Shown here: in pieces, positions 15,337 through 22,721 of the stretch
Numbering within the stretch: position 1 is the stretch's first letter
Layout of the letters: each line of letters starts with the position of its first letter
Assembly: GCA_000415505.1 (NCBI GenBank)
Contig: KE354335.1
Coordinates: 1 to 39,438, forward strand
Length of the DNA stretch: 39,438 nucleotides
Direction of reading: 5' to 3'
Source: Streptomyces afghaniensis 772
Lineage (GTDB): Bacteria; Actinomycetota; Actinomycetes; Streptomycetales; Streptomycetaceae
The notes under the pieces: generated by a model
Told to the model about the DNA's origin: nothing
Database searches by the model: none
Seen by the model: the letters and a program-made list of their open reading frames with translations, nothing else
Position numbers and translations under genes: made by a program

Positions 15337-16443
15337 CTACGAACGCCAGTGCGGTCCGCGCTTGGCCTCCATCGCGGCCCTTCCGATGGCGCCCTTGCGC
15401 TTCCAGTCCTTGCGGATCTCCGCCCGGAGCCGGGCGTCCGTCTTGGCGACGATGCGCTGGTTCTCCCGCAGGAGCTTGCGGTAGCTGTGCAGCCGCCGCT
15501 CCGGCAGGTCGCCCTCCTCGACGGCGGCCAGCACGGCACAGCCCGGCTCGGCCTCGTGGGCGCAGTCGTGGAAGCGGCACCGCTCGGCCAGTTCCTCGAT
15601 CTCGGAGAACACCTGCCCGACGCCGGTCTCGGCGTCCCAGAGTCCCACGCCCCGCAGTCCGGGGGTGTCGATCAGGACGCCCCCGCCGGGCAGCGCGAGC
15701 AGGTTGCGGGTCGTCGTGGTGTGCCGGCCCTTGCCGTCGACATCCCGGGTGGCCTGGACGGCCATGACGTCCTCGCCGAGCAGCGCGTTGGCGAGGGTCG
15801 ACTTGCCCGCGCCGGACTGCCCGAGCAGCACGGACGTCCCCCCGCCGACGATCGCCGCGACCACGTCGAGACCGGCCCCGTCCACAGCGCTGACCGGCAC
15901 CACCGGCACGCCGGGCGCGCTGGTCTCCACGTCCTGGACGAGGTGGGCGAGGGTGACGGCGTCCGGTACGAGGTCGGCCTTGGTGAGGACGACGAGGGGC
16001 TGCGCCCCGGATTCCCAGGCGAGCGCGAGGAACCGTTCGATACGGCCGAGGTCGAGTTCGACGGAAAGGGGCACGGCGACGATGGCGTGGTCGACGTTGG
16101 CCGCGAGGATCTGCCCCTCGGACCGCTTGGAGGAGGTGGAGCGGACGAACGCGGTGCGGCGCGGCAGATACGCGCGGACGTAGCGCGGGTTCCCGCCGGG
16201 TTCGACGGCGACCCAGTCGCCGGTGCAGACGACCCGCAGGGGATCGTGCGGGGTGACGAACGCCGTGTCGGCGCGCAGCACCCCGTCGGCGGTGACGACG
16301 TCGCACTGTCCCCGGTCGACCCGGATCACACGTCCGGGCAGCAGTCCTTCGGTGTCGTACGGGGCGAACTCGTCCGCCCATGCGTCGTCCCAGCCGTAGG
16401 GAGCGAGCGCGGAGGAAACGGATGAAGCGGAGCTGGAAGTCAA
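15337..16443 (-). CDS. rsgA: Ribosome small-subunit-dependent GTPase A (RsgA/YjeQ-like)
   Basis: 368 residues with the circularly permuted GTPase order typical of RsgA: an N-terminal OB-like region, G4-like VLTKADL, G1 GQSGAGKSTLANAL, G3 DTPGLRG, then the zinc finger CRFHDCAHEAEPGCAV. RsgA proteins help mature the 30S subunit. The start is TTG at 16443 with GGAAAGGG upstream. A 13-base palindrome covers that region, and a 22-codon ORF with a strong ribosome binding site lies 46 bases upstream, so translational control is possible. Streptomyces usually carry another RsgA near aroA, so this may be a paralogue; that is from memory, not shown here. Confidence 0.92.
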   Translation of the reverse strand: MTSSSASSVSSALAPYGWDDAWADEFAPYDTEGLLPGRVIRVDRGQCDVVTADGVLRADTAFVTPHDPLRVVCTGDWVAVEPGGNPRYVRAYLPRRTAFVRSTSSKRSEGQILAANVDHAIVAVPLSVELDLGRIERFLALAWESGAQPLVVLTKADLVPDAVTLAHLVQDVETSAPGVPVVPVSAVDGAGLDVVAAIVGGGTSVLLGQSGAGKSTLANALLGEDVMAVQATRDVDGKGRHTTTTRNLLALPGGGVLIDTPGLRGVGLWDAETGVGQVFSEIEELAERCRFHDCAHEAEPGCAVLAAVEEGDLPERRLHSYRKLLRENQRIVAKTDARLRAEIRKDWKRKGAIGRAAMEAKRGPHWRS

Positions 16444-16454
16444 GGGTGACCCTT
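16442..16454 (-). promoter_or_regulatory. Palindrome over the rsgA ribosome binding site and start
   Basis: AAGGGTGACCCTT on the plus strand is a perfect 13-base palindrome (AAGGGT-G-ACCCTT). On the minus strand it spans the GGAAAGGG ribosome binding site and the first two bases of the TTG start codon. It could fold weakly or bind a protein. Confidence 0.4.
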
Positions 16455-16488
16455 TCCAGGTCGGCCCCCGGCCCGACAGTCGGTCGGA

Positions 16489-16557
16489 TCAGCCGGCGGC
16501 CACGGAGGTGGACTTGATGAACTGGATGCGGGCAGCGCCCATCGCAATGACAGCCAT
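16489..16557 (-). CDS. 22-residue upstream ORF (possible leader peptide)
   Basis: ATG 16557 is preceded by GAGGAGG nine bases upstream, one of the best ribosome binding sites in the window. The ORF encodes MAVIAMGAARIQFIKSTSVA-AG and stops 45 bases before the rsgA start. It does not overlap any other gene. The strong initiation signal in front of such a short frame suggests it is translated. Options are a leader peptide controlling rsgA, or a small secreted or membrane-active peptide. It has no run of a single amino acid that would suggest classic attenuation. Confidence 0.5.
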   Translation of the reverse strand: MAVIAMGAARIQFIKSTSVAAG

Positions 16558-16646
16558 CGGTCAACACCTCCTCGGTCCTCGACTCTTCGTGAAATCCGGC
16601 TCCTCGTGGAACCGCCGTCACGCTATCCCGTCACGGGCCGGCCGCG

Positions 16647-18155
16647 TCAACTGCTTTTCGCGCAGTCGTGGCCGTTCAGCGTGAAGCCGTACGGCGGGGA
16701 GTTCTTCCCGTGCCAGGAGGCGAGGAAGCCGAAGGCCAGGTCGCCGCCCGCGGGGACCGACTTGTTGTAGTCGGCGGCGGTGGCGGTGACGCGGGAGCCG
16801 TCCTGGGAGACGGAGGCGTCCCACATCTGGCCGACCTGCTGGCCGTCGCGGAAGGACCAGGACACGCGCCAGGAGTCGAGGGGCTTGCTGCTGGTGACCG
16901 TGACCGTGGCCTGGAAGCCGTCGGGCCACTGGTTGACCAGGTCGTACTCGACCCGGCAGGTGGGGTTCTCGCCCTCGCCGCCCTCGCCGCTCTCGCCGCT
17001 CTTGGTGGGAGAGGACGTGCCCTGCGGTTCGGTGTGGCGGTTCGTGCCCTCCGGTTTGGCGGGCTTCTCCGACTTGCCCGTGTTCTCGGTGGCGTCGTCG
17101 GCGGGCTTCGAGGTCGCGGGCGGCAGGTCGGGGGCGGACGGCAGGGGCGGTTCGGGGTTGGGGTCGGCCACCGGCTGACGGCCGGCGTCGCCGCGTGCTC
17201 CGAGGTCGTCGCCGGAGCCGCCGAAGGGCATCATCGAGACGCCGAGCGCGAGGACGGAGACCAGGACGGCGGCGACGAGGAGTCCGTTGCGGGCGACGCG
17301 CGCCTTCTGCTCCCCGTCCTCCGGATCCCCCGGCGCCTTGTCCGCCCCGTCGGGCCGGCCGGCGCCGAGCCGTACCTCGGCGGCGCGACGGCGGCGCTCC
17401 AGGTAGGCGAGGCCGCCCCAGCCGATCACCCCGCCGGCCAGTGCCCCGGGCAGCCCGCCGCCGTGCAGCCGCAGACAGGCGGCGGCCTCGGCGCACTGGA
17501 CGCAGGTGGCGAGGTGCCGGGAGAGGTCACCCGGGGCGTCGGCGGCGGAGGAGCGGGTGACGGCGTCCAGCAGCCGGGCGTAGCTGCGGCACTGGGCGTC
17601 CATCGGGGTGTCGAGGTGGTTGCGGTGGCATCGGTCCCGGAACAGGGTGCGCACCTGCTGGAGTTCGTCGGCGGCGGTGGCCGGGTCGAGGCCCAGGCGG
17701 CGGGCGACCACGGACAGCGGCAGCGCCTCCACCTCGGCCAGCCACAGCAGTTCGGCGTCGGCCTGCTGCAGGTCGCGCAGTCCGCGCAGCGCGAGCGGGC
17801 GCTGCAGGGGCGGGCCGGTGTAGCGGACGGCCTTGTCCGAGTTGAGCCACAGGCGCAGGTCGGGGTCGAGCTTGTGGCCCTGCCCCTCCTCTTCCCAGGC
17901 CGCGGCCGTGGTGCGTACGGCGGTCAGCAGCAGGGGTATCCGGGGCAGCCGGGCCGCGCGGCGGCCGGCGCTTCTGGCCTGGCCGGTTTCGGCCGCGCGG
18001 GCCTCACGCGTGCCGTGTGCGAACGCCTCGCGGCCCAGCTGTGCGGCGGCGGTGGAGCCGGACGTGCACAGATCGGCGTAGGCGAGGACCGCGTCCCAGC
18101 ACTCCGAGAACAGCGCGGCCTCGGCGGCGTCCTGAGGGGTCGGCAGGTCGGGCAT
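16647..18155 (-). CDS. Sigma-factor-like / zinc-finger / transmembrane protein with extracellular CBM2 cellulose-binding domain
   Basis: 502 residues. Residues 1-165 resemble a divergent sigma factor, with a region-4-like segment (LRGLRDLQQADAELLWLAEV, PLSVVARRLGLDPATAADEL). Next is an anti-sigma-type zinc motif, RHLATCVQCAEAAACL (HxxxCxxC). One transmembrane helix (NGLLVAAVLVSVLALGVSMM) precedes a Pro/Ser/Thr/Glu linker of about 75 residues. The C-terminal 100 residues are a family 2 carbohydrate-binding module bounded by cysteines, with the conserved tryptophans (VNQWPDGFQATVTVTSS, SWRVSWSF, GQMWDA, GFLASWHG). A GCAGGAG site precedes ATG 18155. The likely role is sensing or anchoring to polysaccharide outside the cell. 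Confidence 0.85.
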   Translation of the reverse strand: MPDLPTPQDAAEAALFSECWDAVLAYADLCTSGSTAAAQLGREAFAHGTREARAAETGQARSAGRRAARLPRIPLLLTAVRTTAAAWEEEGQGHKLDPDLRLWLNSDKAVRYTGPPLQRPLALRGLRDLQQADAELLWLAEVEALPLSVVARRLGLDPATAADELQQVRTLFRDRCHRNHLDTPMDAQCRSYARLLDAVTRSSAADAPGDLSRHLATCVQCAEAAACLRLHGGGLPGALAGGVIGWGGLAYLERRRRAAEVRLGAGRPDGADKAPGDPEDGEQKARVARNGLLVAAVLVSVLALGVSMMPFGGSGDDLGARGDAGRQPVADPNPEPPLPSAPDLPPATSKPADDATENTGKSEKPAKPEGTNRHTEPQGTSSPTKSGESGEGGEGENPTCRVEYDLVNQWPDGFQATVTVTSSKPLDSWRVSWSFRDGQQVGQMWDASVSQDGSRVTATAADYNKSVPAGGDLAFGFLASWHGKNSPPYGFTLNGHDCAKSS

Positions 18156-18263
18156 GGGTCTCCTGCATCCACAAGCGAGGTCAACTCACCACTTCGGCAA
18201 TGGAGTTGGGGGAAACCTCGCGGCAGGGCCAGAGCTTTTCACGCCACCCACACAACTGACAAG

Positions 18264-18291
18264 CGCCCTGTTCAGATGTCAGCACAGGGCG
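18264..18291 (-). terminator. Hairpin downstream of the radical SAM gene
   Basis: CGCCCTGT / ACAGGGCG, perfect 8-bp arms with a 12-base loop. A second copy of CGCCCTGT lies at 18337-18344 inside the neighbouring inverted repeat. It could be a second terminator or an operator for the CBM2 gene downstream. Confidence 0.45.
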
Positions 18292-18320
18292 GCGGGCCCC
18301 CACGGCTCCGGCCTTTGTAT

Positions 18321-18362
18321 GCGGTACGGACACGGCCGCCCTGTGACTCAACGCCGTACCGC
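18321..18362 (-). terminator. Inverted repeat immediately after the radical SAM gene
   Basis: GCGGTACGG (18321-18329) and CCGTACCGC (18354-18362), perfect 9-bp arms with a 24-base loop, 28 bases beyond the stop codon at 18391. It is likely a terminator stem. Confidence 0.5.
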
Positions 18363-18390
18363 AATGATGGACGACGTCATCGAAGCGTTA

Positions 18391-19716
18391 TCAAACAGCG
18401 GTGGGTTCGTCCGCCGGGAGGCTGTCCATGAAGGAGCTGACGGAGAAGACCGCGTTGCCGGCGCCGGGGGGACCGTAGCCGGGGGGCGAGGAGAGGCCGA
18501 AGTCCTCCATGGTCTGCCGGTACGCCTGGAGCAGGCGGATGTGGTACTCCAGCGGCGCGCCCTGGGGGTTGGCCTTGCCGAGGGGCGTCGTGGGCTCCGG
18601 GCACCAGGTGGTGAAGCGGGGCGTGATGCCGTGCGACATGAAGAAGCGCAGGCCCTCGGTGGTGGAGGCGATGGCCTCGTCGACCGAGGTGAAGCCGAAC
18701 GGCTCGGCCATCTCCACGCCCGCCACGAAGTTGGGGATGACGTTGCGCGCGCCGAAGATCTCCGCCGAGTCGAGGATGCGCTTGTGCCACTCGTCGCGGC
18801 CGACGTAGCGCTCCTTGCCCGGGCAGTACATCTTGAACAGGTACTCGTCCCACACCTCGTAGTTGGGGTGGTAGATCTGCACGCCGTAGTCCTTGAAGCG
18901 CTGGACGTCGTCACGCGGCAGCGCCTGGGCGACGACCTTGCCGATCCAGCGGCCGGGGAAGCGCTCCTCGATGGCCTTGGCGTAGTGGCCGTAGAAGTCG
19001 GCCTCGTCGCGGCCGGAGACGGTCTTCGTGATGGCGCCGCCGGTGAGGGTGTAGGCGGTGGAGGTCTTCGCCGTGTCGTAACGGTCGATGATCTCCAGGG
19101 CCTCCAGGACCTCCTCGACGTCCTTCACCCCGGTGTAGGGGCGCCCGGCGGCCTTGTGCTGGCGCCAGTTGTGGTTGATGTCGCAGTACTGGCACTCCTC
19201 CTTGGCGCCGAAGTACTGGCAGACCCGGAAGACGGTCAGGTAGATCAGGTAGCCCCACTGGATGGTCGGGGCCACCTCCATGACCGACTTCCCGCTGGCG
19301 AGGGTGTGCCGGTAGTACTCGGGCATCGGCGGCACGCCGACGTCGGAGATGCGCTTGCCGTCGAGGTAGAGGCCGAGCACGCCGTCCTCGTTGGCGGCGA
19401 CGCGGTAGGGCGAGGACGGGTTCACCCGCACCGAGACGACGGTCCGGCGCAGGTCGTAGGGGCCGCCGGTGAGGATGATCTCCTCGGGCGGCCGGCGCAG
19501 CGCGGCCTCGCCCAGCTCGGGCAGGGTGCCGTGGTCGAAGGAGAAGATGAAGTACGACTTCGGCTTGACCTCGCCGCCCTCGTTGTCGCTGAGCGCGGAC
19601 GGGTCGAAGGCCACGCCGCCCCGGAGCAGGTCCTCCTTGAAGACGGCCTCCCGCGGGACGTGCGGGAACCGCTCCATCAGATCCTCGACCAGCGCGGTAC
19701 GGCTGCCGCTGCCCAT
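18391..19716 (-). CDS. Radical SAM protein with non-canonical cysteine spacing
   Basis: 441 residues. The putative iron-sulfur site is CQYFGAKEECQYCD at about residues 170-183, giving C-x8-C-x2-C instead of the usual C-x3-C-x2-C. After it come TLTGGAITKTVSGRDE, a GGE-like SAM-binding strand, and TIM-barrel-like segments (VVAQALP, YGVQIYHPNYEVWDEYLF, NVIPNFVAGVEMAEPFG, TTWCPEPTTPLG), which support a radical SAM fold resembling biotin synthase/Elp3-type barrels. ATG 19716 has GGGAGGAG seven bases upstream. There is no obvious substrate gene beside it. The reaction is unknown. Confidence 0.82.
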   Translation of the reverse strand: MGSGSRTALVEDLMERFPHVPREAVFKEDLLRGGVAFDPSALSDNEGGEVKPKSYFIFSFDHGTLPELGEAALRRPPEEIILTGGPYDLRRTVVSVRVNPSSPYRVAANEDGVLGLYLDGKRISDVGVPPMPEYYRHTLASGKSVMEVAPTIQWGYLIYLTVFRVCQYFGAKEECQYCDINHNWRQHKAAGRPYTGVKDVEEVLEALEIIDRYDTAKTSTAYTLTGGAITKTVSGRDEADFYGHYAKAIEERFPGRWIGKVVAQALPRDDVQRFKDYGVQIYHPNYEVWDEYLFKMYCPGKERYVGRDEWHKRILDSAEIFGARNVIPNFVAGVEMAEPFGFTSVDEAIASTTEGLRFFMSHGITPRFTTWCPEPTTPLGKANPQGAPLEYHIRLLQAYRQTMEDFGLSSPPGYGPPGAGNAVFSVSSFMDSLPADEPTAV

Positions 19717-19879
19717 GCCGTGTCTCCTCCCGGTTCGAACGTACGACTCCTCACGGTATGCCCATGGGTGTGCGAGGCCGGTACCGGGCCCCCCTGACTC
19801 GGGCGAATGTCCCTTTTGGGTACGCCTGGGTTGCAAGTTCGCGACGACCCGGGTGGAGGGGTGGGTTCCGCACGACGAT

Positions 19880-20224
19880 ATGGACATGCCAGAACACGCC
19901 GACAAGCAGCCCGCCGCCGGGACTGATGCGCTCACCGCAGGATGCCTCCTGCTGCTCGTGCTGGTGGCGGACGCGGCAGCCGGTTTTCTGGTCGTGCTCC
20001 TGCTCGCGGTACGGGGGCTGGGCCGGATGGACGCCTGCGCCGGGCAGACGGCCCCCTGCGCACCACCGACGGACTGGGCACCACTGCTGTGCTTCGGCGC
20101 CCTGGCCCTGGCAGTGGGAGTGACGGGCATCCTGCTGCTGCGGCTCGGCCACCCTTTCATCGGAGCGGTCCAACTGGTGCTGTGCATCGTCCTCGCAGGC
20201 CACGCCCTGGGGTCATGGCCCTGA
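19880..20224 (+). CDS. Small integral membrane protein of unknown function
   Basis: 114 residues with three predicted transmembrane helices: ALTAGCLLLLVLVADAAAGF continuing to LVVLLLAVRGLG, then PLLCFGALALAVGVTGILLL, and FIGAVQLVLCIVLAGHALG. A short loop with two cysteines (MDACAGQTAPCAPP) is probably outside the membrane. ATG 19880 (or 19886) is the best start, but no strong ribosome binding site is close. It is divergent from the radical SAM gene (163-base gap) and convergent with the hydroxyacid dehydrogenase. I do not recognise a family. Confidence 0.65.
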   Translation: MDMPEHADKQPAAGTDALTAGCLLLLVLVADAAAGFLVVLLLAVRGLGRMDACAGQTAPCAPPTDWAPLLCFGALALAVGVTGILLLRLGHPFIGAVQLVLCIVLAGHALGSWP

Positions 20225-20245
20225 CCCAGGAACAGTCCACGCGTC

Positions 20246-22721
<2,476 letters not shown>

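What the first reader, a model, noticed from the sequence alone, without database searches (positions are those of the whole stretch)
16647..18155. One polypeptide joins a sigma-like domain, a zinc-finger motif, a membrane helix and an extracellular cellulose-binding module
Clostridium cellulose sensing uses RsgI-type anti-sigma proteins with outside carbohydrate-binding modules acting on separate sigma factors. Here the sigma-like part, the HxxxCxxC motif and the CBM2 lie in one chain, so polysaccharide binding could be linked directly to a cytoplasmic DNA- or polymerase-binding domain. Alternatively the sigma-like part has become only a docking domain.
Basis: partly seen in the sequence, partly recalled or inferred. 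Interest (0 to 1): 0.75.

Follow-up and report, generated by a model that had tools for sequence, protein, structure and literature searches.

The report
Membrane sigma-like receptor with cellulose-binding domain
This Streptomyces gene makes one protein that reaches from a gene-control-type domain inside the cell, through the membrane, to a cellulose-gripping domain outside; the overall design is already published for related bacterial sigma factors, but the inside domain here has lost several of their usual signature features.

Summary
The 502-aa ORF (16647-18155, minus strand) has a sigma-fold N-terminus, a C-H-C-C zinc site, one membrane helix, a Pro-rich linker and a C-terminal CBM2. The zinc ligands, the CBM cysteines and its W/W/Y face are invariant in 81 of 81 sequences (window plus 80 loci). 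The arrangement is not new in kind: actinobacterial ECF52 sigma factors (SCO4117) fuse sigma, zinc finger, membrane region, Pro-rich stretch and carbohydrate-binding domain; ECF53 is described likewise. What differs: the window clade lies outside the ECF52-like branch, with lectin- and LamG-tailed paralogs; its sigma part is missed by Pfam Sigma70_r2 (0 of 70), has lost the region-2.2 Asp (kept in 1 of 81), and its region-2.4 segment averages net charge -1.1 instead of +4. Yet this cytoplasmic part is better conserved than the CBM2. Most likely it is a fused sigma/anti-sigma glycan receptor whose sigma-derived module has diverged towards protein docking or unusual promoter use. Co-occurrence with GH48 cellulase is largely clade inheritance and does not show cellulose sensing.

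The parts
16647..18155 (-). whole gene, 502 aa fused sigma-like / zinc finger / membrane / CBM2 protein
   Evidence: 80 Streptomyces loci matching residues 1 to 495-502
17613..18155 (-). sigma-like part, residues 1-181 (sigma2-like about 8-97, conserved linker about 96-120, sigma4-like about 118-181)
   Evidence: hhalign; AF2; Foldseek/VIA; alignment
17460..17606 (-). zinc-finger anti-sigma (ZAS-like) segment, residues 184-232, ligands C189 H214 C218 C221
   Evidence: 81 of 81 keep all four; aligned with the zf-HC2 region of ECF52-like proteins; no Pfam zf-HC2 hit in the window clade itself
17370..17459 (-). residues 233-262, GVIGWGGLAYLERRRR block, the best conserved stretch of the regions measured
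   Evidence: mean column identity 96.5%, 60% of columns invariant in 81; kept in L028, which lacks the zinc finger
17220..17291 (-). single membrane helix, about residues 289-312
   Evidence: hydropathy
16959..17219 (-). Pro-rich, weakly conserved linker, residues 313-399 (15 Pro in 87)
16650..16958 (-). CBM2, residues 400-502; cysteines C400/C498; aromatic positions W410, W445, Y463
   Evidence: Pfam 1e-28; Cex CBM2 6qfs 2e-24 and EngD 3ndy 1.8e-16; all five residues 81 of 81
18237..18263 (-). conserved upstream block CTTGTCAGTTGTG-N7-CGTGAAA, promoter or operator candidate
   Evidence: each fixed position the same in at least 79 of 81 loci; no second copy in the own genome with up to 3 mismatches
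18175..18221 (-). conserved leader hairpin or dyad GCGAGGT..CAACTC / GAGTTG..ACCTCGC just before the ribosome site
   Evidence: 30 of the 81 loci, 13 pairs, 97.4% of cells paired, 3 pairs with a compensatory change (each in one sequence); slid controls 26-52%; single-sequence fold z only -1.27

Best explanation
A membrane receptor of the fused sigma/anti-sigma kind. Shown by sequence: sigma-fold unit, intact zinc site, one membrane helix, CBM2 with conserved aromatic positions. Inferred: the N-terminus is inside and the CBM2 outside; the CBM2 grips beta-1,4-glucan or chitin; binding or pulling alters the zinc unit or triggers cleavage in or near the membrane helix, as proposed for ECF52; the sigma-derived unit is thereby freed or exposed. 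Because its region 2.2 and 2.4 signatures are changed in nearly all members while its fold, its linker and its zinc unit are tightly conserved, I think it acts mainly by binding a protein partner (core RNA polymerase, or another sigma/anti-sigma) rather than by reading ordinary ECF promoters.
For: Homology through sigma2, sigma4 and ZAS to ECF52-like proteins and sigma fold in the model. Tree of 28 rows: a 100/99 branch separates ten rows that keep the usual sigma signatures from the eighteen CBM2-, ricin- and LamG-tailed rows. Region-2.2 Asp: Q 69, E 7, R 4, D 1 of 81; E43 and F45 each 80 of 81. Region-2.4 segment net charge: ECF52-like +4 (5 of 5), five-sequence-independent second canonical group +1.7 (3 rows), ricin +0.1 (7), LamG 0 (1), window clade mean -1.1, range -4 to +1 (81). 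Pfam Sigma70_r2 0 of 70, against 5.7e-13 and 5.2e-10 for the two ECF52-like proteins scanned. Column identity: sigma part 87%, ZAS 91%, residues 233-262 96.5%, linker 55%, CBM2 79%, which speaks against decay. Different ectodomains on one chassis: NPCBM, Ricin_B_lectin, LamG, CBM2.
Against: The sigma4-like part keeps basic residues (R175 and R178 81/81, R173 80/81, R169 78/81), and its recognition-helix charge differs less (+0.8 against +2.2; LamG +2.0), so DNA contact is not excluded. Pfam's region-4 model is also weak on canonical members (below cut-off in L011, absent in L033), so its failure says little. The model is weak (pLDDT 62.5). One relative (L028) has lost the zinc finger. Ligand, cleavage and partner are all untested. 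SCO4117, the studied relative, does affect transcription (PMC5826349, passages).
Confidence: 0.55

Rival explanations
1. It is a working ECF52/ECF53-type sigma factor with shifted promoter preference: polysaccharide binding leads to release of the sigma part, which directs RNA polymerase to its own regulon.
For: Published model for ECF52 and SCO4117 phenotype, with autoregulation seen in a strain with truncated SCO4117 (passages); sigma fold; conserved Arg residues in sigma4 and E43/F45 in region 2.2; strongly conserved own upstream region.
Against: Loss of the region-2.2 Asp in 80 of 81 and of the basic region 2.4; Sigma70_r2 fails; the conserved upstream block has no second copy in the genome at up to 3 mismatches, though a sigma site would be shorter than that block.
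Confidence: 0.3
2. A question of ligand, not exclusive of the other readings: the ligand is not environmental cellulose but the bacterium's own tip glucan (CslA/GlxA product) or chitin, and the protein is an envelope or development sensor, as SCO4117 is by phenotype.
For: Streptomyces make a glucan at hyphal tips that depends on CslA and GlxA (PMC11022532, title and abstract start in listing); none of the eight window neighbours scanned is a cellulase; GH48 association is largely clade-bound.
Against: Gene present in only 56 of 151 Streptomyces genomes, although the tip glucan machinery is thought to be general in the genus (recalled); 50 of the 56 carry GH48.
Confidence: 0.35
3. The sigma part is a relic and the protein is only a surface adhesin that anchors cellulose to the hypha.
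For: Pfam sees no sigma domain in the window protein; CBM2 and membrane helix are intact. In one relative (L028) the zinc finger is gone but, by eye, membrane part and CBM2 remain.
Against: The cytoplasmic part is better conserved than the CBM2 (87-96% against 79%); all zinc ligands 81 of 81.
Confidence: 0.1

Closest known systems
ECF52 sigma factors (SCO4117 of Streptomyces coelicolor)
   Same: One chain: sigma part, zinc finger, membrane region, Pro-rich stretch, carbohydrate-binding domain; Actinobacteria (PMC5826349 passages). The window protein is homologous over sigma-ZAS to ECF52-like proteins.
   Different: ECF52-like proteins have a Pfam-recognisable sigma region 2 and, in L033, an NPCBM; the window protein has CBM2, a diverged sigma part, and lies outside their branch (98/99). 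SCO4117 itself was not on hand: the ECF52-like label rests on domain content.
Ricin_B_lectin-tailed and LamG-tailed sigma-like paralogs in Streptomyces
   Same: Same diverged sigma-ZAS chassis; hhalign probability 99.9 (ricin) and 97.7 (LamG).
   Different: Different ectodomain; the CBM2 rows form one group at 100/99.
ECF53 sigma factors
   Same: Described as fused sigma / zinc finger / membrane proteins, some with carbohydrate-related domains (PMC8999054, PMC10766802 passages).
   Different: Cannot be compared: no ECF53 reference sequence or model was on hand.
RsgI/SigI of Clostridium thermocellum
   Same: RsgI factors sense substrates and are cleaved by RseP in the membrane helix (PMC12203970, abstract start in listing).
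   Different: Two proteins instead of one; SigI is not an ECF52-like sigma and RsgI has no ZAS zinc finger (recalled, not tested).

Membership tests
ECF52 | Sigma2/sigma4 domain recognisable as ECF sigma | tested here: inconclusive
   Pfam Sigma70_r2 0 of 70, Sigma70_r4_2 10 of 70; profile-profile E 4e-16 to ECF52-like proteins
ECF52 | Zinc finger after the sigma part | tested here: met
   C189 H214 C218 C221 in 81 of 81; no Pfam zf-HC2 hit though
ECF52 | Membrane helix then Pro-rich extension | tested here: met
   one helix by hydropathy; linker 15 Pro in 87, mean 17.7% Pro over 81
ECF52 | C-terminal carbohydrate-binding domain | tested here: met
   CBM2 1e-28; the ECF52-like protein L033 carries NPCBM instead
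ECF52 | Falls inside the SCO4117-like branch | tested here: not met
   five ECF52-like rows form their own branch 98/99; window clade outside (28 rows; SCO4117 itself not included)
ECF53 | Match to ECF53 reference model | not testable with these tools
   no ECF group models or ECF53 sequences held
CBM2 | Family match, cysteine pair and aromatic positions | tested here: met
   6qfs/1exg and 3ndy; C400, C498, W410, W445, Y463 81 of 81; third position is Tyr in EngD 3ndy too
Functional ECF sigma factor | Promoter-dependent transcription with core RNA polymerase | not testable with these tools
   needs in vitro transcription

The most novel reading that the evidence does not exclude
Streptomyces has turned a fused sigma/anti-sigma unit into a general glycan-receptor chassis whose ectodomain is exchanged (CBM2, ricin-type lectin, LamG), and in this branch the sigma fold no longer reads promoters but serves as a regulated protein-docking domain, so that polymer touch outside is passed on by a sigma-shaped adaptor.
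Probability: 0.35. Interest if true: 0.75.

Novelty: new variant of a known kind. Interest (0 to 1): 0.45.

Why it matters
How Streptomyces senses insoluble polymers at its surface is, as far as I know, little understood. A single-chain protein linking a cellulose-type CBM to a sigma-derived domain gives a direct test, and the clade is easy to overlook: Pfam's sigma region 2 model misses it, and a plasmid-borne relative is annotated only as 'cellulose binding domain-containing protein'. If the sigma fold has become an adaptor, it would be an instance of a transcription-factor fold re-used for signalling.

Tried and rejected
Cellulase co-occurrence as evidence of cellulose sensing: of 151 Streptomyces genomes, GH48 (E <= 1e-30, two partial matches, G162 and G165, counted as present) is in 50 of 56 with the gene (E <= 1e-100) and 41 of 95 without (Fisher 7e-9). 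On a FastTree rpoB tree of 150 of these genomes the gene needs only 7 parsimony changes; a dependent-evolution test of my own gives p 0.016, but the neighbouring radical SAM gene, used as control, gives p 0.023, and a gas-vesicle control 0.28. Within the 95 genomes with the radical SAM gene the table is 49 of 55 against 24 of 40 (Fisher 0.001), without tree correction. I read this as mostly clade inheritance and did not use it as support. G003, whose relative lacks the zinc finger, counts as 'absent' at that threshold.

Known RNA element near the gene: no Rfam match up to E 1 in 16300-18500. Shared regulon through the conserved upstream block: no second copy in the genome. One search used a wrong spacing (N8 for N7) and found nothing, not even the own site; it is discarded. 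ORFs around the paralogs were only listed and not interpreted.

PDB by sequence profile for residues 1-258: no match up to E 10; a canonical ECF52-like sequence finds SigE at 1.6e-4 in the same library. One search ended in a script error and read minus-strand loci in the wrong orientation; one search replaced it. In the listings of paper searches (titles, abstract starts, and passages of three papers) I saw no paper on a CBM2-bearing member; papers I did not open could hold one. The ECF classification paper (10.1093/nar/gkaa1229) is not held; Huang et al. 2015 and Pinto et al. 2019 were not read.

Full report
What is there. The ORF at 16647-18155 (minus strand) encodes 502 residues. Pfam up to E 1 shows the CBM2 at 400-498 (E 1e-28) and a chance-level membrane model, and NCBIfam only the CBM part of a cellulase. 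The zinc motif and sigma-like part are therefore missed by single-sequence libraries, and had to be tested through relatives.

Relatives. A pattern scan of the GTDB species collection kept 80 loci, all Streptomyces by title, matching residues 1 to 495-502 at 67-91% identity in the best segment (the best 80 of 246 matching stretches, some of which may share only the CBM2). In 151 Streptomyces genomes the gene is present in 56 at E <= 1e-100. The own genome holds four more relatives of the cytoplasmic part: C445, with Sigma70_r2 above the cut-off and Sigma70_r4_2 and zf-HC2 below it; and C547, C543 and C775, of which C547 and C775 carry Ricin_B_lectin C-termini, while C543 was grouped with them by its cytoplasmic part only and its C-terminus was not scanned. 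A relative in another genome carries a LamG domain (L035). A divergent relative on a Streptomyces cadmiisoli plasmid has HxxxCxxC and, by motif and eye, the W, W, Y positions of the CBM2; it is annotated only as a cellulose binding domain-containing protein.

Divergence. In the ungapped stretch VRRVAAAWTRSARREQL (ECF52-like) / VRTTAAAWEEEGQGHKL (window), the region-2.4 basic residues are gone. Over residues 80-97 the net charge is +4 in 5 of 5 ECF52-like proteins, +1.7 on average in three rows of another canonical-looking group, and averages -1.1 (-4 to +1) in 81 window-clade sequences. The region-2.2 Asp of the ECF52-like proteins is Q in 69, E in 7, R in 4 and D in 1 of 81; E43 and F45 are each kept in 80 of 81. 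That region 2.2 meets the RNA polymerase clamp and region 2.4 the -10 element is recalled, not tested. Against a dead domain: column identity is 87% in the sigma part, 91% in ZAS and 96.5% in residues 233-262, against 55% in the linker and 79% in the CBM2, and R173, R175 and R178 of the sigma4-like part are kept in 80, 81 and 81 of 81. The recognition-helix charge differs less (+0.8 against +2.2), so DNA contact there is not excluded. In the tree of 28 rows, a 100/99 branch separates ten canonical-looking rows (two of them, L011 and L033, confirmed by Pfam) from eighteen diverged ones, and the CBM2 rows form one group at 100/99 (some long branches, so the places of L032, L035 and the plasmid protein are unsure).

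Outside part. The CBM2 aligns with Cex (6qfs, 2e-24) and EngD (3ndy, 1.8e-16). The cysteines and W410, W445 and Y463 are invariant in 81 of 81; the third position is Trp in Cex but Tyr in EngD. That these aromatics form the binding face is recalled. One membrane helix puts the CBM outside if the N-terminus is inside (inferred).

What is known. SCO4117 of S. coelicolor is an ECF52 sigma factor with zinc finger, membrane region, Pro-rich stretch and carbohydrate-binding domain; its knockout delays development, a strain with the sigma domain alone is less affected, and release by proteolysis is proposed (PMC5826349, passages). A review expects ECF48, ECF52 and ECF53 proteins to work this way (PMC8999054, passages), and another states that glycosyl hydrolase and carbohydrate-binding domains are predicted in some ECF52/53 proteins without experimental validation (PMC10766802, passages).

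Context. A radical SAM gene lies upstream on the same strand in 80 of 80 loci (next to the gene in the window, further away in some); rsgA follows in 51 of 80 within the flank held. The 5' region is strikingly conserved, with a promoter-like block and a hairpin. GH48 co-occurrence does not stand as specific evidence once a neighbouring gene is used as control.

Verdict. A real, conserved, fused receptor; a new variant of the ECF52/53 kind with a CBM2 and a diverged sigma part. Binding, signalling and output are all untested.

Noticed in passing
window 18175-18263 (minus strand): Highly conserved leader of the gene: block CTTGTCAGTTGTG-N7-CGTGAAA and a two-part hairpin with a C-rich bulge before the ribosome site; 97.4% of cells paired in 30 loci, three pairs with one compensatory change each.
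   Followed up: partly
window 16489-16557 (minus strand): 22-codon ORF (MAVIAMGAARIQFIKSTSVAAG) between this gene and rsgA; tblastn match at E < 0.01 in 43 of 80 loci; possible leader peptide.
   Followed up: partly
L028 (G003:C1:698100-701648): Relative 62% identical over residues 1-183 in which the zinc-finger segment is missing while the GVIGWGG block and, by eye, membrane part and CBM2 remain.
   Followed up: partly
L279 4629-6122 (Streptomyces cadmiisoli plasmid): Divergent plasmid-borne copy of the sigma-like + CBM2 protein, annotated only as cellulose binding domain-containing protein.
   Followed up: partly
window 18394-19716 (minus strand): Radical SAM protein (NCBIfam NF045502) of unknown role, upstream on the same strand in 80 of 80 loci.
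   Followed up: partly
L011 / G000:C445:3409-4161: The own genome's ECF52-like gene has an open frame of about 400 codons without an NPCBM; frameshift, assembly fault or true truncation not decided.
   Followed up: no
G000:C462:16780-23355: GH48 cellulase (19634-21517) with three CBM2 hits around it, one probably in the GH48 protein itself; an apparent cellulase cluster on another contig than the window.
   Followed up: no
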